Assembly (NCBI RefSeq): GCF_000003605.2
Contig: NW_003137329.1
Span: forward strand, 86,410 to 110,939
Reading direction: 5' to 3'
Source: Saccoglossus kowalevskii
Lineage: Eukaryota; Hemichordata; Enteropneusta; Harrimaniidae
DNA: 24,530 bases
Position numbers and translations under genes: made by a program. Below, piece by piece: positions 1,091-24,530 of this stretch. Under the pieces are notes generated by a model. That model was given only the letters and a program-made list of their open reading frames with translations, searched no databases and was not told the origin of the DNA. Positions within the stretch are counted from its first letter, which is position 1. The number at the start of each line of letters is the position of its first letter.

Positions 1091-1150
1091 TTTATTACTG
1101 TTGGAGGTTGAACAGAAGATGTCTGCAATACTGGATAAAATTATATGTAT

Positions 1151-1548
1151 TATCAGAGGTACATTATTTGGGGTTTGCAACGCACATAGTACTGTATGGT
1201 GACATCATGCCAAGATCCCATTCAAGTCTCATCTCGTAGATAGCGAGACTGATGCTACTACCTTCTGACATGACAGAGGCGGTTTGTAATAAAGCAATAA
1301 AACATGTATTACCACATTCATAGGGAAAAAATGTAATACATAGAAAATGTACAGAAAATATAGTTATCGTAATCCGTCATATCGTGAGCAGCTATTTTGA
1401 CCCACCTGGACATCCCAGTATCGTAGTTACCTCGGGCATAAGCATTCGCATTTTTCTGAGTTGGAACGCTTATGCGAGGGCGAGATAGTAACGGGATTTT
1501 GGTATCATGTCACTGTAGTTGCAAACCCCAAGTAATGTACCTCTGATA
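1151..1548. repeat. Foldback: long imperfect inverted repeat
   Basis: The segment 1151-1181 is repeated in inverted form at 1518-1548 with one mismatch over 31 bases. Similarity continues inwards with more differences, to about 1229 on the left and 1492 on the right, and the left arm has a roughly 12-base insertion. Inside the loop a shorter inverted pair, CATAAGC with GCTTATG, lies near 1437-1479. A TA tract (about 1549-1564) follows the right arm. This may be a foldback transposon, or an inverted duplication of the 5' end of the adjacent LINE fossil. Confidence 0.75.
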
Positions 1549-5078: not shown

Positions 5079-5157
5079 ATGGCGTGGATGAAGACGAAAC
5101 TGGTTATGGGAGTGATATGTGTCCTTCATTTACTACAAGTGAGGGCGCTAGATGCAG
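5079..5157 (+). CDS. Coding exon 1: start codon and signal peptide
   Basis: The ATG at 5079 opens 26 codons plus one base. The short basic start (MAWMKTK) is followed by a hydrophobic core of about 14 residues (LVMGVICVLHLLQV), then RA-LDA, with a likely signal peptidase site after A23. The next in-frame M codons at residues 4 and 10 would shorten the signal peptide, so M1 is preferred. The donor is CAG|GTAAGG at 5158. The last G joins AT of the next exon to make Asp. The base before the ATG is an intron boundary, so the exon really begins at about 5078. Confidence 0.85.
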
Positions 5158-8100
5158 GTAAGGGAAATCACGTGACTATAAGCTGTTAGAGTTGTTCGCA
5201 ACCCTGAAACAGGAAAAAATGATCACAGTAAATCATTCAAAAATTGTACGTCAATGATTCACATATATACAAGTCATTTATATTTACGGAGAAAGAAGGA
5301 TGTGTTTTCAAGAATGCATATGCAAAATAATAAAAAATATATTCGAGGATTTCTTAGGATGATTTTCAATGATAGCGAAAAAGCCTCAAGATATATATAA
5401 AATAAAGCAAAAAAAAAAAAAAAAAAAGCAATTGTTTTTAGTACTATTCAACTCCTGTCATCTTTAAAAAACAAACCTGCATACTTTTAATATAAAATAT
5501 TTTGATCAAGACGAAAATCGGAATTTGGTTTAAAGTTAACAAAGAAATTATAGAGAAACAATGTTCAAAATGTGGCAGCAAATTAATGGCGAGAAAATTT
5601 GAAAATTGGAAGTGCTGAATATTAGCTGAACATGTAACAATTGTACATCAGTTCGGTAGATTCAAGCACCCTAACAATTAGCAGCCAGTCACTGTCAATG
5701 ATACAGTATTAGTAACTTTTAAACAACTGATCATTTGGTTCCACACACTTCGTGTGAGTGTGTGTTGAACCTTAGCACATTTGCAGACCCCTATTCGTCA
5801 TTATGAACCAAAAAATCAACACACTTGTTTGTATAATCGTGGTCATACGTTATTATGACCTAGCAACAATGAACGCCCCAGTGAGGAGGAGTTGCTTATG
5901 TGCAATCAGAATTATGCGATTATCATGCTAATTTTTAGAATATTATTCCATTCATATGTGTTAAATCGGCGGTGATATCGTTGGTTTTGCCTTGTTGTAC
6001 GTCCCAAAGTAGTGCAATAGCTGGTGCTCAGGTAGAGCGACGTGGCCCTGGAACATGTATGCGCGTATCATCTACACTGAAACACGCAGACACATCGTAA
6101 ATAAATATTTACAGTTGGCGTGTGTTTCATGTTTGTTTGCATTAATGTATATTTGCATAATATGCTTTTATTTTCATGTTACACACTTTTCAACAACATA
6201 AAATGATGCAAACATTATAATTACGTTAGGTAGATTCAGGGAGTAATACTCTTGATAGTGTACACCAATGACGTCACGCATTATGCAATAATACGGCAAT
6301 TGTACGTTATAATATCCAGTTATATGGTACTTTGACAGATCTCGAGATGACCCACGTGATTGTCAATTCAGTGGATGACATCATACCGTTAGACACGCCA
6401 AGTGGACTTTTTCCTGTTGTCAACTTCAAGAATTCGGGACCGACGTCTATCAACGAAGCCAGTGGTGAGAACCTGAACTTCGAACTCAAAGCTTATCTAT
6501 CAAGTGTGAATGGAAGGCCAGATGCTAGTAGTTACATATTGGGCGATATCGGAAACCTGTCGCAGTCTGTGGACAGTTTACGTCGCGGAATCAGTGTAGA
6601 TCATACCATCGGGATTACACTATTCGATGTCGATATAGAAATACCATCCTCAGTATGTGATTGGGTCAAATATTTCTGTGTTGAAGTGCAACTACTTGAC
6701 ACCACAGGTTTAGTTGATCGTAATCCCAATAACAATTATGCTTGCAAGCTGTTTGATTTACCAATATCCATGGATGACAGAATTGGAAAGTTTCTTTGTT
6801 ACATAGGTAAGTAGAGATTCGCTTACTATAAACATAGTCGGAAGAATAAATTGTCCAAGCCATTACAAAATTTGCGATTATGTAATGAGATGTTAGAGCG
6901 CCCTCAGTAGTAAGTATATTGCGGTATCATTGAGATATTCTATTATTTAACTCATACTACTGAAAATACTCTGAATTAGAATCGTGTGGGGCAATTGTTA
7001 TCAACATATCTCTGGAATGTTGAGCAGTGAATCTACTTGTTGAACAGTCTGTATTCTACCCTACACCCTATGTGTACAACATGTTAGTCTTAACAACCGC
7101 ATGCCTCATAATGCATATTATTATACCTCATTTCAATTGATTGGCTTAATAGGATGGCAATATGAATAAGAATACTTCACTTTAAATTTCCACATAAACT
7201 GGCCCATTGCCGAAGTATTCTACTGTTGCTATAGCGATACTAGAGTGTTCTGATGTGCATATTTTGGAACTTTAGTGGTAAATTGCAAGTTTGAAAGCTG
7301 CTGTATTTAGATTTGTTTGTTGATGATTCATAACATTACATCGCATCAATTGTACCTCCTCGTATTCATGCATTGGTTGAAACAAGATTCGTCTTGATTG
7401 CCGTTAATACAATATATCAACACTTCACTAACATTGAGCTGACATGTAATATGAGTCCCTCCGATCACACTGGACCCACGGCCCGACATATTCATTGTAA
7501 TTCACCATAACTGTGTCAATGTATAGCTTACAATTGCATAGACCTTTGTTAACAACATTACCTTTCTTTGAGACTCTATTTGTATGTTGACTTTTTGGGC
7601 CAAACTGCGAAATAACTCACAGCTGATCCGACCAACACAATTGATGCTATATAATTATAATACACGTTTAAACTGTTATTTCGGTATGCATCTCTTTTTA
7701 ATATATTGATGAAGGTCTGTGTGGGTGTTTTAAATGTTCATGTTGAAGTTTGGAACTTCATGTTCATGTTTGAAAGGTTCGTGGGGAGGATATAAAGGGT
7801 TCATGTGGATGTTCGGAAATCCATGTGGGTGTTTAAAAGGTACGAGTGGATGTTCGGGAGTCTTATGTGAGTGTTCACGAGGTTCATGTGGGTGTTTGGA
7901 ATGGTCAATGGGGTTAATAATTTTAAGACCAGATATTTGTTATTGTAATATATATATATATATATATATTTATTGTTTAGTTTAAACGTGCAAAATCAAT
8001 GATTATATATTTTAATCAAGATTTTCGAATTTGTCAAAAAATTATGTGCAAATTACTTATTTTTCAGGGAAATTAAAATAGTTGTTCATTTCTTTTACTT

Positions 8101-11100
8101 TTTGTATATTTGGTCAGTGTAATCAAATCCTTTAATCGCCATAATTATCAAGTATGAGTTATATACACATTAATGCATTATGTTGTTTACTTTCAGATAT
8201 TGCATCTACAGCTGCTAAGGTGACTGATCCAGCTGATTTGGAATATCTGGCCGGCACTTCGTATGACGTCACCTTCGAAACAAGTATCACCAATTATGGA
8301 GGAATCCCTTTGGGCTCTCCACCTAGTGGACAACACAATTTGAAACCAATTGTGTTTCTTACTGACAGCGATCAACTGGAGGACGCTACTTTCTCTATAG
8401 AACAACCTGCCATAATCACAACCTATGACGATACAGTGGATCCAAATGAGAATATTACTCTGGGAGTTTTTACTGCAAGTATAACAATTCCCCTAGATGA
8501 AGCTGACTGCCTGAAGATTACTCATGTATGTGTAGAAATCGTCGGAGACAGAGACTACGGCGAGGAATACCCTGATAACAACGATTATTGTTTGATGTTT
8601 GGTCCAGTTGACGAAGGCAAAGCAGGCAAAAAGTATGGCTGTCCCGCGGACGGGGTCGGTAAGTCGGATTTTAATTTTCTGTGTAATATATCTTATTAGA
8701 TTTGTCACAGGTAGTCTCAGTGAGGTTTACATATGCCGAGGAATTTTTATATAAATCCAGTTGTCAAACAAATGGCACGTTCTAGTCTAAGTGATATATG
8801 TTATTCAATAGCCGTCAATATTTTTCAGATCTTCAGATTGAATCTTTTGAAGTGGTTGATTATGCGACTGTGATTTACAACATTGGACGCGACACTGATA
8901 TAGAAATCAATGCAATAATCAAAAACGTTGGCGATACAGCGATCGAAGATTCAACACCTACAGGACCAATCAACTATGAATTTGATGTTTATTTCATCAA
9001 CCACAGATCTGACTTTGATTCAAGCACTGATACATTGACCTTCACCGCTGATTACACTAGTGCTACGAACATGAAAGTTGGTTTATCATATGGAAATGTT
9101 TTAAGCATAAGCCAAATAGCGACAACTACGAACCTACCAGCCGACACGGCTAGGTGTACCGCCTATCAAAGTGTTTGTTTAAGAGTAAGAGAAGGATCAA
9201 ATGCACCATATGATGAAGATGTTACAGATAACAACATATTGTGTAACGAATTTGATACAGTCGTAGGGCACAAGGATTGTCCTGATCTGGATATTGGTGA
9301 GTGAGAATTTGAGTTCATTTTATGAGGATGGATGTCTATTCGTACACTATACTTTAATATGTCCTTGTAGAACAGGTACCCCCCCCCCCCGAACAATGTT
9401 TGTTGAATTTGTTAAGTCGAAATGATATTCATATCTCTCCTCTTAATGGACATTTGCTCATCTCCCCTAAAGCAGATAATTGATGTTGCAAATGGTTCCA
9501 TCTGTTTCGGTGTTACATTCCACTTTACAGGATTGTAATTAGGTAAATGTCACAACCTGTCCATCATTCACTTTTTAACACATGTGCATCTATTCTGTGT
9601 ATTGTGCTTTAAAATTATGTAGTCCAATAAATATGGCTAGAAAATTTTATCGATAAATTCAATTCACCAAAGTTAACAACAACCCCCCCCCCCCAAACAA
9701 AATCTCATAAAATAGATCTCTTCCAACACGAAAATGCACTTGATGTAATTCGCTTGATAAAGTGCTTCTTTGGCTACACTTGCATGTCACAGTCCTGATA
9801 GAACGAACCATGATAGGTGTCTTCTGTGATCATCATTACGTTACAGTACTCGAAACACTGCAGCAAAAGAAGACTAAACATTGCATCTGTATTTTGTTCT
9901 TCAGATATTGAACCAGTGAACATGACAGTGACTCCAGTGACAGACCCTTATCCATTAGATACTCCAGTAGACACAACTATTGAAATTGGGATTACTAACA
10001 TCGGACCTGGTAATCTACCTGATGTTGCTGACCCGGAAGTGAATTACGTAGTGAAAGTGTTCCTCTCAGACAGTGATGAGCTCGAGAATGCGAACCTTAA
10101 AATAGAACAGACATCTATCACCACTGACGATAATCAGTTAAGACAAGGACTTGTTAAAGATGGAATAATTGACATCTCGCTTAATCCAGCAGTCATCACT
10201 TTACCTGAAAATGATTGTTATGATTTGCTTTACATCTGTGTGGAAATATCTTTGCATCCTGACAGTATTTATATAGAAACGAACCCAGATACTAATGATT
10301 TCTGTGTTCAATTTGGGCCCCAGAATGACGGCAAAGCTGGAGAAACAGAATGTTTCATTGGTAAGATGTAACTATATTCTAGCTACATGGTTTATATTGG
10401 TGATATATTCTCGGGGCGGACATCCGGGCATTTTCATCTCCTGGCAACCCGCGGCGGTGAAAACAAAGGCCAAAAACTCGCAGAAAACGATACTTTGGGA
10501 TGATTGTTGAGACTATTCTGAACAGTGTAACACGATTAGCCCTACGTGTGTAACATATATAAATTTGGTTGTTCGGGATTACTTCAAAGTTGAGTTTGTG
10601 TTGTTTTCTCGAATTTTCACCGACTCGACCGTCGTTCCACAGCAGCGCGCACAGAGCCCATAGAAATGCATGTACAGTGGTGCGCGTCGTAGCAACGTGG
10701 AACGTCTTGTGACGTAGCTCCGCCCCCGAGGATAGAGTGCGAATTTCATTGGTTTCATTAGTTAACCTTTTCGCCAACAGTTCCCTCTTCTCATCACAAA
10801 TTCACAAAACAGTTCTGTTTATAGTCTGCACATTCCTTCAGCTGATTGGGACAAAAATAACCATTTTCTTTACTAAAAACAAGAAATTATCTCAAATTTT
10901 GTCTGATGGCTCCAAAATTAGGGTTCATTATTGAAGAATATAAGAACAAAATGCAGAAACATGTGGGTGAGAAAGTCTGAAGGTGAAAATTAAGGTTAAT
11001 TGCTTTATTAAATATGTGTATAGCCATGTGTTTCATGAATTTAAAAACTTATTGAACACTTGTTCTTATTGTAGATATCGCTGCTACCAGCGTTGAAGTT

Positions 11101-14100
11101 ACATCCCCACAAGACCTAACCTATAAACCAGGGATCGCTACTGCCATACAGATTCAACTATCTGTAGACAATAATGGAGGCGTCACGTTAGATGAAATGA
11201 CAGAGATGGCGGAATACAATTTTGTTCCTCTCATATTACTCACAGACAATGATGACCTGGCAAGAGTTGGATCACCCATAGAAGCAGTCGTAATCAGTGG
11301 TGGATTCACACAAGAAGTTACAGGGAAGACATCAAATCTGACTCTATCTCCAAAAATTGATGTGGAGGTCATTATTCCAACAGAGAGGGATCAGTGTGAA
11401 AAGATCCGATATCTTTGCCTGGAGATATTTCACAGTGTCGATGTGTATGTAGACACAGATGCATCAAATGACTTCAAATGTATAGAGTTTGGAGCAATCA
11501 GTGAAGGAAAAGCTGGAATTATTGAATGTAACATCACTATTGGTAAATATTCCAATCCTAATTTGTCCACATAATCATATATAATAATAATATAATTGTC
11601 AAAACGTTAGTATGACCACGAAATGTGTGTGTAAGGTACACACTACAGGAAATCATGATGTATACAATGACAGTGAAAATATAAATACATATCCTTAGTA
11701 TACAATTAAACGTTGCCTTCGATAAATTTGATTTAAACTGGTATGCGTGTTTGTCACTCAATCAAACACACGGTAAACTGAGGTCCAATAATTCAATAAT
11801 ATTAATATTTGTAAAATTTAAAACAATATGCTGGTAGTGTTTATATATGTCACACAAACACAACTAATGCAACGTATCATGTAATATATTAACAGACTTG
11901 TCAGCTAACAATCTAGTAGTGGCTCCAGAGGTACCGAAGTACGACTTTGATGTAGACACAGATGTTGAACTATCCGTGGATTTAACCAACAACGGTGCTG
12001 GTGACATTCCTCAAGCGATAGGTGAAAGGCCAAACTTCAATGTCAGAGCATATATAACTGATAGCGCAAATCTCGAAGCCGCTTCACTGATGATTGAACA
12101 GGACCTTAACTATGATCAAGAAACTCTTTCCGGTGCAATTGATAACGGGGATCTTCTTACGCTGCTGACTGACCAAGCCATACTGAACATTCCGCTTGAT
12201 AGGTGTTTGGAAATTTCTCATATATGTGTGATTGTGACTCTGGCAGACGATGGTAATTCGGTATTCTGGGATCCTGACCTCACTAATAACGATGCTTGCT
12301 TAGGATTCGGGCTAATTACAGAAGGATATGCTGGTGTTATCCCATGCTTCATAGGTAGGACATTTTATATATGTGCACGTAGAAACTGTATACATCTCCA
12401 AAATGAAAGCATTTTTGTTTTGTCTGTGGTATTAGTGTTCCAATATGTATTTGATGTCATCTATATTTCTGGCTTCTGACGGATCTTTTTTTTTTAATTT
12501 TTCCAAAATACATGACAAGGAAAACTTCCTTATCATACAGGCAGAGCTGTCTCAGAGAGTGAGGTTATTTACTGTCAGTTTTTTGTTTTGTTTTTTTTTG
12601 GGGGGGGGTATATTTCTGACTTCTATGCCATGAACTGAAACACGTCTTGACTAAATTTATAGCGGAGATATTATCATGATTATATTGTACCAGCAATCTA
12701 AGGATGTGTTTCGTTCGTCTGAATAAAAAAGTGGGGGGGGGGCAACAATATTAGCCTTTTTGAAACTTAACTATGTAGCAGTCGCTCACCTTTTAGCCTT
12801 TTAGAACTCAATATTACCATTGCTAGCTAGATGACCACTCTGCAATACATGTACATACTTTACAATGTAGAATCACGTGAGATCTCGTAACGATCATATA
12901 ACTATTTGTCTACTCCAGATCTTGCTGCCATAAATCTAAAAGTCATCTCGCCACGGAATCTGCGCTATCTCGTTGGCGTACCAACTGAAGTCGAAGTCCA
13001 GCTTACCGTGCATAACTACGGCGCGCTCACTTTGCCTCATGCACCGGAAGAAGCTCCCAATAAGCTGTATAATTTCAAACCGGAAATGTTCATAACAAAC
13101 GGAAACAATCTGGACACCGCATCCATGGTTGACCCACAAGATGACGTTGAGAAAACGTTCAAGCATGAAGTAGCATCTGGCGTGACCGTGATTTTGGTAT
13201 CATTTATGATAACTGTAAAGATACCTGAAGAAACGGAAGACTGCAGAGACGTTTCACATCTCTGTATTCGCATCAATGACAATAATTTCGTGTATGTAGA
13301 TGGCTATGCACCCAACGATAACACGTGCACTGCCTTCGGTGATGTGAGAGATGGGAAGGCAGGACTGTACACGTGCCTCGGAGGTAGGTTATTAGGCTCT
13401 CAGAGAAAGGGACACACAATGGAATCGGAGAACAGAAGCAATAATAATTGCAGAATACTCCTAGCTTAAAGCGGGGGAGTCGTCACCCTGCGCATGCGTC
13501 AGATGGCCATACATGTCACAGATTACTAAAAAGCGTCCACCCATGAAGCCTTTGNNNNNNNNNNNNNNNNNNNNNNNNNNNNNNNNNNNNNNNNNNNNNN
13601 NNNNCCCTCCCGCCTTAACAAAATAATACTCATCTCTAAGTGAACATAAACACTTTAACGTGTCACAGAGAAAGTCATTAATATATCACATGGTATATTC
13701 AGTTAACCGTCTGACCGTAATGTTTTATGATGTCTCGCCTTCTATTTGGTTTATATTTGGTTCAAGGTTCAGGTGCATTGTAGCTATCTTTAGGGTTGAC
13801 TCGGCTAACTAAAAACTTGCAGAATATTTCAAGGTTCTTTTTTTTTTCTTAGCCAGTCACGGGGAACTAAATTCCTATGTCAAATCTGTGTTAGCGTTAT
13901 CCATGCGGTAGTTTGACAATTTGCTATGTGCTATTGCATTTCAGACGAGATACCCGATGGCGAAGAACGATCGGGCTTACCAATTGCGTACACCATCGGT
14001 ATAGTTGTTGTAGTAGTCATTGCTGTCCTCATTGGTATTACAGTGGCTATATGCAATGGATGTAAAAAGTAAGTAATTCTGTTGTACGCATACATAATTT

Positions 14101-14739
14101 GGGTGTCAATTCGAGTCAGATACTGTATGTGGGTCTCATGTTACGTGTACAACGCATGTAACATACATACTGGAAATTTGAAAGCTAAAAGACTGGAGAA
14201 ATTCAATCTTCGTCCGATTACCAAGTAGGGATAGTAGTGAATTTGAATATTTACTGACTACTATATTCCATTTCGATATTAACCTTATTTGATGTTTGTA
14301 CTTAAAGCGCCATAGTCGTTTATTTGGGACAACATGCTAATGAATGTATATTGTTCTCTAGGTTCATTTTAACTTATACGCCATTCGTCTAAGTACATTT
14401 TAACTTATACGCCATTCCTCTAAGTCGCGCCCTCTAGCGACGAATCATTTCGACGGGAGTAATGACGCCATTCACATCGCCCTTTTTAGCGATCGTCTGT
14501 CAATAAAAATTCGCTATACTCTAAATAACGAACGGCTAAATAACTAAACGTTGTTGTTTACCAACATCACTTTCACTCATCTATGTTGACATCACAAAAT
14601 CGCTTTGCTCTCACGGGACGCAACTAATGAAGGTCTACTGCGCATGACTTTAAAATATATTTATATCTACTACAGCCTGTTCTTATTATCTGTTGTTTTT
14701 TCTCTTAACAGGCGAAATCCAAAGTATATGACTGCCTAG
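5079..14739 (+). CDS. Seven-domain type I membrane protein, receptor- or adhesion-like (ten coding exons)
   Basis: The spliced coding sequence is join(5079-5157, 6339-6806, 8197-8658, 8829-9296, 9905-10360, 11075-11542, 11896-12354, 12919-13383, 13945-14068, 14712-14739), 3477 nt or 1158 residues. All introns are GT-AG and the frame is open throughout. Layout: signal peptide (about 1-23), seven homologous domains (27-182, 183-336, 337-492, 493-644, 645-800, 801-953, 954-1108), an acidic linker, a transmembrane helix (about 1122-1144) and a 14-residue tail with NPKY at 1152-1155. Each domain has four cysteines, C-x6-C-x(19-23)-C-x(11-17)-C, and most carry a GKAG loop between the last two. The N-x-G strand ending and the 'PDNND' turn recall CARDB/Ig-like folds, which is an inference. 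Predicted N-glycosylation sequons are at 99, 268, 498, 732 and 797. I know no named homologue. Ligand and function are unknown. A gap in intron 8 could hide another exon. Confidence 0.9.
5158..6338 (+). other. Intron between signal peptide and domain 1
   Basis: 1181 bases, GTAAGG...TTTGACAG. It contains a run of 19 A at 5409-5427 and a small GTG-rich hairpin near 5740-5765. No coding content was recognised. Confidence 0.7.
6339..6806 (+). CDS. Coding exon 2: domain 1 (type B)
   Basis: 468 nt, phase 1-1, encoding residues 27-182. The first half is a beta-rich stretch with the NSG turn (NFKNSGPT). The second half has CDWVKYFC, then NPNNNYACKLF, then a final Cys in GKFLCYI. It keeps the C-x6-C-x21-C-x17-C spacing. 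The LDTP(S/V) start groups it with domains 4 and 6. The LxDSxxLE(x)A strand is weak here (LSSVNGRPDASS). One N-glycosylation sequon is at residue 99. Acceptor TTTGACAG, donor ATAG|GTAAGT. Confidence 0.9.
7714..7905 (+). repeat. Degenerate minisatellite, unit about 21 bp
   Basis: Repeated variants of TTCATGTGGGTGTTTGGAAG occur about eight to nine times, with substitutions and small indels. They keep one plus-strand frame open and create a spurious Cys/Gly-rich peptide (GSCGCLE-like). It lies wholly within intron 2, so it is not called as coding. A TA microsatellite follows. Confidence 0.75.
7947..7969. repeat. TA dinucleotide microsatellite
   Basis: An uninterrupted alternating TA run of about 23 bases inside intron 2. 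Confidence 0.9.
8197..8658 (+). CDS. Coding exon 3: domain 2 (type A)
   Basis: 462 nt, phase 1-1, encoding residues 183-336. It starts DIASTAAKVTDPADLEYLAG, has ITNYGG, then LTDSDQLEDATFSIEQ, CLKITHVC, EEYPDNNDYC and DEGKAGKKYGC. This is the clearest CARDB-like copy, with the N-x-G strand and the acidic PDNN turn. It groups with domains 5 and 7, which share the P-x-(D/N)-L-x-Y-x-x-G start. A sequon is at residue 268. The donor is TCG|GTAAGT; an earlier GT at 8655 would break the frame. Confidence 0.92.
8829..9296 (+). CDS. Coding exon 4: domain 3 (divergent copy)
   Basis: 468 nt, phase 1-1, encoding residues 337-492. It keeps the fold landmarks: IKNVGD, CTAYQSVC, and TDNNILC, then Cys in GHKDC. 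It has lost the GKAG loop, so the last two cysteines are only 11 residues apart (15-17 in the others), and it has a Thr/Ser-rich middle (SSTDTLTFTADYTSAT) instead of the SDSxxLExA strand. The preceding intron is only 170 bases. It belongs clearly to neither the A nor the B type. Confidence 0.9.
9297..9904 (+). other. Intron 4
   Basis: 608 bases, GTGAGT...TTCTTCAG. It contains two C tracts, twelve C at 9379-9390 and twelve C at 9683-9694. No coding content was recognised. Confidence 0.75.
9905..10360 (+). CDS. Coding exon 5: domain 4 (type B)
   Basis: 456 nt, phase 1-1, encoding residues 493-644. Landmarks are YPLDTPVDTTIEIGITNIGP, LSDSDELENANLKIEQ, CYDLLYIC, NPDTNDFC and NDGKAGETEC. It pairs with domain 6, sharing the GxGxxP and EQ features. 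The sequon NMT is at residue 498. Acceptor TTCTTCAG, donor ATTG|GTAAGA. Confidence 0.92.
10361..11074 (+). other. Intron 5, with a CpG-rich insert
   Basis: 714 bases, GTAAGA...TTATTGTAG. The middle part, about 10411-10735, is clearly richer in G+C and CpG than other introns (e.g. CGGGGCGGACATCCGGGC and ACGTAGCTCCGCCCCCG). It carries a minus-strand open frame of 132 codons that I do not recognise. This looks like a foreign insert or a regulatory block, not an exon. Confidence 0.6.
11075..11542 (+). CDS. Coding exon 6: domain 5 (type A)
   Basis: 468 nt, phase 1-1, encoding residues 645-800. It starts DIAATSVEVTSPQDLTYKPG, then VDNNGG, LTDNDDLARV, CEKIRYLC, DASNDFKC and SEGKAGIIEC. Sequons are at 732 (NLT) and 797 (NIT, just after the last Cys). 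It is closest to domain 7 and domain 2. Acceptor TTATTGTAG, donor ATTG|GTAAAT. Confidence 0.92.
11543..11895 (+). other. Intron 6
   Basis: 353 bases, GTAAAT...TATTAACAG. AT-rich, with nothing recognisable in it. Confidence 0.8.
11896..12354 (+). CDS. Coding exon 7: domain 6 (type B)
   Basis: 459 nt, phase 1-1, encoding residues 801-953. Landmarks are DFDVDTDVELSVDLTNNGAG, ITDSANLEAASLMIEQ, CLEISHIC, DPDLTNNDAC and TEGYAGVIPC (GKAG changed to GYAG). Open sequence continues past the donor to 12479, but the ATAG|GTAGGA donor and alignment with the sister domains fix the exon end. Confidence 0.9.
12355..12918 (+). other. Intron 7
   Basis: 564 bases, GTAGGA...TACTCCAG. It includes T-rich runs, nine G at 12600-12608 and ten G at 12733-12742. 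No exon was recognised. Confidence 0.75.
12919..13383 (+). CDS. Coding exon 8: domain 7 (type A)
   Basis: 465 nt, phase 1-1, encoding residues 954-1108. Landmarks are DLAAINLKVISPRNLRYLVG, VHNYGA, ITNGNNLDTASM, CRDVSHLC, APNDNTC and RDGKAGLYTC. It is the membrane-proximal domain as far as the assembly shows. Donor GGAG|GTAGGT. Confidence 0.92.
13384..13944 (+). other. Intron 8, interrupted by an assembly gap
   Basis: 561 bases as drawn, of which 13555-13604 are N. A round 50-base run of N usually marks a join of unknown length. The true intron may be longer and could carry additional domain exons. Right end: CTATTGCATTTCAG. Confidence 0.85.
13555..13604. other. Assembly gap (50 N)
   Basis: Fifty undetermined bases between a sequence ending GCCTTTG and one starting CCCTCCCGCC. 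The real size is unknown. Confidence 0.99.
13945..14068 (+). CDS. Coding exon 9: juxtamembrane linker and transmembrane helix
   Basis: 124 nt, entry phase 1, exit phase 2, encoding residues 1109-1149 plus two bases. An acidic linker (DEIPDGEERSG) is followed by about 23 uninterrupted hydrophobic residues rich in Val and Ile (about 1122-1144), then CNGCKK. The positive charges after the helix fit a type I orientation. The two cysteines at the inner face (1145 and 1148) could be acylated, which is an inference. Donor AAAA|GTAAGT. Confidence 0.9.
14069..14711 (+). other. Intron 9
   Basis: 643 bases, GTAAGT...TCTCTTAACAG. It contains two direct copies of a 31-bp unit (14365-14395 and 14396-14425) and, directly after, a CGCCCTCTAGCG motif at 14428-14439. 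Confidence 0.75.
14365..14425. repeat. 31-bp tandem duplication in intron 9
   Basis: CATTTTAACTTATACGCCAT followed by TC(G/C)TCTAAGT occurs twice in a row, with one internal difference. A recent local duplication. Confidence 0.9.
14712..14739 (+). CDS. Coding exon 10: cytoplasmic tail end with NPKY
   Basis: One base completes Lys1150, then RNPKYMTA and the stop TAG at 14737-14739. NPKY is an NPxY motif, known from integrin beta tails and endocytic receptors as a PTB-domain or clathrin-adaptor docking site. With only 14 residues after the membrane, this is nearly the whole tail. Confidence 0.85.
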
Positions 14740-23324: not shown

Positions 23325-24176
23325 TGATCCAGTTGTGAAATAAATCATCATGGACATGTATCCTAACATGTATAATCTATGTACCATCCCCGTGTGCTCT
23401 ATTCTGTAAAACTTGTCATTTTAGCTTACATTTTATTTTAGCTTATTTAGCTAATCGATAACTTTGCTATTTCAAGATGTAGCTATAATAAATTATATTC
23501 TCACAGTGAGATTGTTGGTACTTAAGCTAAATTAAAATTATGTTAATTTATACATTGAGTCAAATTCGCCAGAAATTACTTGTACCTATTTCAACATGTT
23601 TACATTATGTCGTCGTTTGCCACGCCCTCTAGCGGTGGCTTATTTGTAGTCCTGTGTTTTCGTTATGACCGATAACGCCATTAAATTGCCATACTCTCCA
23701 TAATATTTGACATTTTTCTCTAAAAAAGTATTTATAGTGAGTAAAAGAACATTCAGATTAAATTTAAACGATTAGTGCTACATTAAGCGAACGTATGAGA
23801 AAGCATCTCTCCGTCCACGCCCAATAAAGTATAACCAAAACAAAACTTCAGAGCACACTCTAGCATAGTTTTTTTTTTTTTTTTTTAATAAACGCAATTA
23901 TTATCCGTGTTACAGAGCGTAAAAGAAAAAGATGGCACAGAGAATGTAGAAAAAAAATACAATGATTCAATTGGGGAGAAATTCTTACAGTAATAATTGC
24001 CTATGCTACTTAACTTCAAGTTGAATACAAGATGACAACTAATCATGCATTTTTGATGGAACTTCAAAATTTACTCATTTGCGCTGCTTTGGTAATAGTG
24101 TTACGGCGGAGATTTACCGGCGGTGTTCTCTTCATAAATAATGCAAGTTATCGGCCATCTGCTCATCCATGAATAT
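23325..24176. other. Intergenic region
   Basis: No gene was recognised. It contains CGCCCTCTAGCGG at 23623-23635 and a run of about 18 T at 23869-23886, which could be the poly(A) tail of a minus-strand retroposed sequence, although I see no matching element. Confidence 0.45.
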
Positions 24177-24530
24177 CTGAACAGTCATCATAATTGCAAT
24201 CTCTCTGTCCACGCTTACCTGAACACTTATGATTTGAATCTATCTGAACAGTCATCATAATTGCAATCTCTCTGTCCACGCTTACCTGAACACTTATTAT
24301 TTGAATCTATCTGAACAGTCATCATAATTGCAATCTCTCTGTCCACGCTTACCTGAACACTTATGATTTGAATCTATCTGAACAGTCATCATAATTGCAA
24401 TCTCTCTGTCTACGCTTACCTGAACACTCACAATTTGAATCTATCTGAACAGTCATCATAAGTGCAATCTCTCTGTCCACGCTTACCTGAACACTTATTA
24501 TTTGAATCTATCTGAACAGTCATCATAATT
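24177..24530. repeat. 67-bp minisatellite, at least 5.3 copies, open at the window edge
   Basis: Units start with CTGAACAGTCATCATAATTG at 24177, 24244, 24311, 24378, 24445 and 24512 (partial). Copies differ by only a few bases: TTATG versus TTATT near position 55, and a more changed fourth unit with CTCACAATTTG. Within each unit CTGAACA occurs twice (at +1 and +43), followed by related sequence, so the unit itself probably arose from a duplicated shorter half. The array continues beyond the window. Confidence 0.97.

What the first reader, a model, noticed from the sequence alone, without database searches (positions are those of the whole stretch)
5079..14739. Unrecognised seven-domain type I receptor-like protein
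Ten exons give an open frame of 1158 codons: signal peptide, seven homologous domains of about 155 residues, one transmembrane helix and a tiny tail. The domains align with one another along their whole length, yet I cannot assign them to a named metazoan family. The N-x-G strand end and the acidic PDNN turn suggest a CARDB/Ig-like beta sandwich. If so, this would be an uncommon animal surface protein built almost wholly from such repeats.
Basis: partly seen in the sequence, partly recalled or inferred. Interest (0 to 1): 0.85.

Follow-up and report, generated by a model that had tools for sequence, protein, structure and literature searches.

The report
Unnamed animal surface-protein repeat family
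A marine-animal gene, probably from a hemichordate, appears to encode a membrane-anchored surface protein built from seven copies of a four-cysteine beta-sandwich domain that matches no curated domain family searched here and recurs elsewhere in the same genome.

The parts
5079..5157 (+). Exon 1: start codon and signal peptide (MAWMKTKLVMGVICVLHLLQVRALDA)
   Evidence: GT donor at 5158; hydropathy 1.75 over residues 8-26; preceded by an acceptor-like ...TTTTTTGCCACAG, so a 5' UTR intron is possible
6339..6806 (+). Exon 2: domain 1 (residues 27-182)
   Evidence: AG/GT borders, phase 1-1; leave-one-out 54 bits
8197..8658 (+). Exon 3: domain 2 (residues 183-336)
   Evidence: AG/GT borders, phase 1-1; leave-one-out 98 bits
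8829..9296 (+). Exon 4: domain 3 (residues 337-492), the most divergent copy by leave-one-out score
   Evidence: AG/GT borders, phase 1-1; leave-one-out 44 bits
9905..10360 (+). Exon 5: domain 4 (residues 493-644), modelled by AlphaFold2
   Evidence: AG/GT borders, phase 1-1; leave-one-out 107 bits; model pLDDT 90.1, pTM 0.86
11075..11542 (+). Exon 6: domain 5 (residues 645-800)
   Evidence: AG/GT borders, phase 1-1; leave-one-out 92 bits
11896..12354 (+). Exon 7: domain 6 (residues 801-953)
   Evidence: AG/GT borders, phase 1-1; leave-one-out 94 bits
12919..13383 (+). Exon 8: domain 7 (residues 954-1108)
   Evidence: AG/GT borders, phase 1-1; leave-one-out 104 bits
13945..14068 (+). Exon 9: short acidic stalk, transmembrane helix (about 1120-1144), C-N-G-C-K membrane border
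   Evidence: Phase 1 in, phase 2 out; hydropathy peak 3.28
14712..14739 (+). Exon 10: last residues of the cytoplasmic tail (KRNPKYMTA, the first K split by intron 9) and stop
   Evidence: AG acceptor, phase 2

Best explanation
It is a type I membrane protein whose ectodomain is a chain of seven very acidic, seven-stranded beta-sandwich modules with four conserved cysteines each, of an unnamed E-set/Ig-like family. It belongs to a family of probably a dozen or more genes in this animal (gene borders of the paralogs were not worked out), probably a hemichordate. Most likely it works as a rod that holds binding surfaces away from the cell: an adhesion or recognition receptor that binds a partner cell, matrix or microbial ligand. 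Any signal would have to pass through a partner, because the tail is too short to signal. Shown by computation: gene structure, domain homology, family size, fold class, one transmembrane helix, tiny tail. Inferred: the junctions as expressed, disulfides and their pairing, the rod shape, possible cation binding at the acidic F-G turn, and adhesion/recognition as the function.
For: Gene and domains. Phase-1 symmetric one-domain exons, the usual sign of extracellular modules multiplied by exon duplication (general knowledge). Family: 48 merged places, every row E below 1, on 17 contigs. Four paralogous stretches (L033, L036, L041, L042) end with the last part of the same domain, a stalk, a transmembrane helix and a short tail; three of these four C-termini were scanned and reach no Pfam cut-off. 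In all 13 pairs of at least 45% identity, out of 105 pairs tried, pN is well below pS (0.15-0.36 against 0.55-0.85), so these copies look like constrained coding sequence. Fold: pLDDT 90.1 and 92.2 for two different subfamilies. Ectodomain pI 4.05, 187 acidic against 56 basic residues. On C2884 the four first domains group together (100/98) and so do the four second domains (99/98), so a two-domain stretch, probably a gene, was duplicated as a unit.
Against: No expression, binding or localisation data. No ligand-binding family is matched, so adhesion rests on architecture alone. My script found no clear transmembrane exon in 11 of the 15 paralog loci scanned, C2884 among them (one doubtful row in L031, one candidate in L038), so membrane anchoring is not shown for most of the family. 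dS is saturated in 7 of the 13 pairs, so the selection test is coarse. Only 6 of 25 inner branches of the tree are well supported.
Confidence: 0.55

Rival explanations
1. A true but highly diverged CARDB (PF07705) lineage that animals took over from prokaryotes or inherited, enlarged and given four cysteines. It would work like prokaryotic CARDB repeats: surface adhesion spacers, perhaps binding metal ions at the acidic F-G turn. (Not exclusive of the best explanation: it concerns descent.)
Confidence: 0.2
2. An innate-immune recognition family (pathogen-binding receptors or decoys) expanded in tandem, as other invertebrate receptor families are.
For: Tandem cluster of 8 domains within 20 kb of C2884, strong divergence between paralogs, short tails.
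Against: pN well below pS in the 13 pairs reported, so no sign of diversifying selection over whole domains; no known immune domain was looked for or found beside them apart from the Pfam scans.
Confidence: 0.2
3. A structural or mucus/matrix protein (coat, tube or mucus scaffold) rather than a recognition receptor.
For: A stretch on C2888 has four divergent copies of the domain beside a long Thr/Pro/Glu-rich mucin-like repeat; ectodomain very acidic.
Against: The window gene and four paralogous stretches have a transmembrane helix; only 5 N-glycosylation sequons and no mucin-like stretch in the window protein.
Confidence: 0.15
4. Not one gene: chance frames or a decayed array.
For: No RNA evidence; one run of 50 N lies in intron 8 (13555-13604).
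Against: Seven in-frame domain exons with matching phases and splice borders and no stops; constraint in the family.
Confidence: 0.02

Closest known systems
CARDB domain (PF07705; cell adhesion related domain of bacteria and archaea; 2kl6, 3idu, 2l0d)
   Same: E-set sandwich of surface proteins; N-x-G at the end of strand B; acidic/Asn turn before strand G; structures among the best matches of both models
   Different: 101 positions against about 153 residues; no cysteine in the four PDB sequences aligned over the matched stretch; Pfam model does not hit; profile comparison not significant
Integrin alpha leg (calf) domains
   Different: No Pfam family matches the full protein at E<=10; Z in the range of common arrangements; integrins have a beta-propeller and no sevenfold repeat (recalled)
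Fibronectin type III / Ig superfamily adhesion receptors
   Same: Works like them: chain of sandwich modules on one transmembrane helix, one module per phase-1 exon (the likeness is recalled)
   Different: Different cysteine pattern and length; no FN3 or Ig match above cut-off (one of 28 members has Fn3_nematode at E 0.088); FN3 profile score 7.8-8.7, at noise level

Membership tests
CARDB (PF07705) | Match to the curated Pfam model | tested here: not met
   0 of 28 domains at E<=1; 0 matches in the whole genome at E<=1, control rings in 7 of 14
CARDB (PF07705) | Profile-profile similarity to prokaryotic CARDB sequences | tested here: inconclusive
   hhalign local probability 6-23%, E 0.0009-0.006 for one comparison, 26-27 columns; global 1.5%; 0 of 200 column permutations as good
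CARDB (PF07705) | E-set beta-sandwich fold like 2kl6/3idu/2l0d | tested here: inconclusive
CARDB (PF07705) | N-x-G after strand B and D/E...N turn before strand G (motif read from the alignments) | tested here: met
   N 26/28, G 25/28; D/E 24/28, N 23/28
CARDB (PF07705) | Length about 100 residues (Pfam model 101 positions), no conserved cysteines | tested here: not met
   152-156 residues in the window, four Cys in each; three Cys invariant in 28 of 28, the fourth in 26
FN3, Ig, cadherin, integrin and other named animal sandwich families | Match to their Pfam models | tested here: not met
   Full protein: no family at E<=10; 7 domains: none above cut-off, best E 0.0025 (DUF5027). 28 domains: no family matches more than one member, best E 0.0013 (SlpA_C), Fn3_nematode 0.088 in one (which shows cut-offs for the first member only)
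Integrin alpha leg domains | Calf/thigh fold | tested here: inconclusive
Type I membrane receptor | Signal peptide, ectodomain, one transmembrane helix, cytoplasmic tail | tested here: met
   By sequence and hydropathy only; no dedicated predictor was on hand

The most novel reading that the evidence does not exclude
A previously unnamed animal domain family (about 153 residues, four-cysteine E-set sandwich) that makes up a whole class of cell-surface receptors in hemichordates, perhaps ambulacrarians, and may be the first animal branch of the CARDB adhesion lineage otherwise known from prokaryotes.
Probability: 0.35. Interest if true: 0.75.

Novelty: new variant of a known kind. Interest (0 to 1): 0.58.

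Why it matters
A surface-protein family with tens of domain copies in one animal genome and no curated model means that part of that animal's cell surface is invisible to standard annotation. With an alignment and a confident fold in hand, a family model can be built and its spread over animals tested at once. If the CARDB link held, it would tie an animal adhesion family to a prokaryotic one.

Tried and rejected
Named families: Pfam on the full protein, on seven domains and on 28 domains, and NCBIfam on the seven window domains, gave only isolated weak hits (PIF3, DUF5027, SlpA_C, Fn3_nematode, RelN antitoxin and the like), each on one member; rejected as chance.

PDB by sequence: phmmer none at E<=10; profiles of 7 and 28 domains best E 0.79 and 1.4. 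Foldseek: no match at E<=0.001 for either model (best rows Asf1 0.0099 and a shark antigen receptor 0.0036, with low TM-scores). With model 1 the best VIA rows were GH2-enzyme sandwiches and archaellum stator proteins, above CARDB; taken as a common arrangement. The fourth CARDB entry (2kut) is not among the 50 rows shown for either model.

Relatives in prokaryotic genomes and viral contigs: P0004 found none by tblastn (104 and 18 pattern stretches, 0 relatives), so bacterial contamination or a recent transfer of this very domain finds no support.

A 4080-aa open frame reported beside one relative on C2888 was followed: it is inflated by runs of N (9394 of 10000 bases of L307, 866 of 7000 of L306).

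Alternating A/B domain types in the window gene (domains 1, 4, 6 against 2, 5, 7): separated in 95% of 200 bootstrap trees but with 63/61 branch support, and not recovered as such in the tree of 28, so only a hint.

Literature: six searches bore on the family or on CARDB in animals and one on mitochondrial gene order. None listed a description of the family, but they were narrow: searches returned 0 papers (62 was badly worded) and 51 was swamped by words such as cardboard. Nothing is claimed about print.

Full report
WHAT WAS CHECKED. Ten exons at 5079-5157, 6339-6806, 8197-8658, 8829-9296, 9905-10360, 11075-11542, 11896-12354, 12919-13383, 13945-14068 and 14712-14739 join to 1158 codons and a stop. 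All nine introns are GT-AG; introns 1-8 are phase 1 and intron 9 phase 2. Seven stop-to-stop frames of 150 codons or more lie in the window, all on the + strand and all of them domain exons; a first-order Markov null gives 0.2 on average and at most 2 in 200 runs. A profile of the seven domains finds these seven and no other in the six-frame translation of the window, and leave-one-out profiles find each with 44-107 bits, against 13.5 or less for 500 shuffles each.

THE PROTEIN. Residues 1-26 look like a signal peptide. Seven domains of 152-156 residues follow, one per exon. A short stalk leads to a hydrophobic helix (peak at 1126-1144) and a basic tail of 14 residues beginning C-N-G-C-K-K. 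The seven domains share N-x-G, a second Asn, four cysteines, a Phe and a Gly. Each has exactly four cysteines; the other three of the 31 cysteines are in the signal peptide and at the membrane border. The ectodomain is very acidic (pI 4.05), and the protein has five N-glycosylation sequons. Even if intron 9 were kept, translation would stop after C-N-G-C-K-K (read).

A FAMILY, NOT A SINGLETON. The window lies in a genome of 572 Mb in 4830 contigs. Domain 4 finds 29 places (weakest E 0.53), a paralog from contig C2472 finds 24 (E<=1), and a distant one from C1358 finds 17 (E<=1). Merged, they are 48 places on 17 contigs; some are weak or partial, and the tool calls its counts lower bounds. In the 15 fetched loci a profile of the window domains gives 42 paralog rows, per-domain E 3.9e-30 to 0.64. 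On C2884 eight domains lie within 20 kb as four pairs; their first domains form one group and their second domains another (100/98 and 99/98 support), so a two-domain stretch was duplicated as a unit. L033, L036, L041 and L042 end with the last part of a domain, a stalk, a transmembrane helix and a tail; the C-termini of L033, L036 and L041 reach no Pfam cut-off. In the other 11 of the 15 loci the same script found no clear such exon, C2884 included, so anchoring is shown only for part of the family, and gene borders were not worked out. C2888 has four divergent copies beside a Thr/Pro/Glu-rich repeat. In all 13 pairs of at least 45% identity, out of 105 tried, pN is 0.15-0.36 and pS 0.55-0.85: these copies are constrained as coding sequence.

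CARDB OR NOT. Pfam CARDB does not hit any domain or anything in the genome. A profile of 54 prokaryotic CARDB sequences aligns with A2 over strand B, N-x-G and strand C with score 21.8-23.9 and probability 12-21%; paralogs alone give 22.8%, window copies alone 5.9%. Forced over the whole domain the probability is 1.5%. No permutation of 200 reaches the local score (maximum 14.4; the reversed profile 15.5), and FN3, PKD and Big_2 profiles from phage contigs score 7.8-13.9. So there is a weak signal, which may reflect no more than the strand-N-x-G-strand pattern of E-set domains. PMC8416519 (passages seen) calls CARDB a cell adhesion related domain of the E-set clan. I do not file this as CARDB.

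WHICH ANIMAL. Contig C4830 holds mitochondrial COX1. In 256 aligned codons ATA stands at Ile (5) or Val (1), never Met, and TGA at Trp (4 of 5); no AGA, AGG or AAA occurs there. AAA stands at Lys positions of COX2 and ND1 that I recall as conserved. tRNA-Gln and tRNA-Ala lie on the fetched piece, which speaks against a cnidarian (recalled). PMC2697986 (passages) says that ATA=Ile is shared by echinoderms and hemichordates, and that AAA is Asn in echinoderms but Lys in the hemichordate Saccoglossus. A hemichordate is therefore the best guess (my estimate about 0.8). Sponges share these readings (recalled) but use AGA/AGG for Arg (recalled). COX1 lies on the strand opposite to ND1 and COX2, which is unlike the hemichordate orders that I recall and speaks somewhat against the guess.

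HOW IT LIKELY WORKS. One transmembrane helix, a tail too short for a signalling domain and seven modules with four cysteines each make a rod suited to holding a binding site away from the membrane. Multiplied, diverged copies fit a family of adhesion or recognition receptors with different partners. The acidic F-G turn could bind cations (3idu is titled as a complex with di-metal ions), but this is inference. I give adhesion/recognition about 0.55, with immunity and matrix structure as the main rivals.

NOVELTY. No curated family in the libraries searched covers the domain, and the six paper searches that bore on it listed no description, but they were narrow, and no animal proteome or uncurated database could be searched; the proteins may well sit in public sets as uncharacterised. 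It is a new domain family of a known kind (extracellular sandwich repeats), hence 'new variant of a known kind'.

Noticed in passing
window 24174-24530: 67-bp tandem array, 5.3 copies, 95% matches, running to the window end.
   Followed up: no
window 13555-13604: Assembly gap of 50 N inside intron 8.
   Followed up: no
window 1127-1181 and 1518-1572: Inverted repeat of 55 nt, 84% complementary, 336 nt apart; perhaps a small transposon.
   Followed up: no
L125 (contig C4830 of the genome): Mitochondrial contig with COX1 on the strand opposite to ND1 and COX2; ATA stands at Ile positions and AAA at Lys positions.
   Followed up: partly
L306 2-2848 and 3376-5934: Four divergent copies of the domain beside a long Thr/Pro/Glu-rich mucin-like repeat broken by an assembly gap.
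   Followed up: partly
L040 4045-4407: Paralog whose C-terminus ends in a hydrophobic stretch without a tail, as in GPI-anchored proteins.
   Followed up: no
window exons 2-8: Domains may alternate between two types (1, 4, 6 and 2, 5, 7), hinting at duplication of a two-domain unit; weak branch support.
   Followed up: partly
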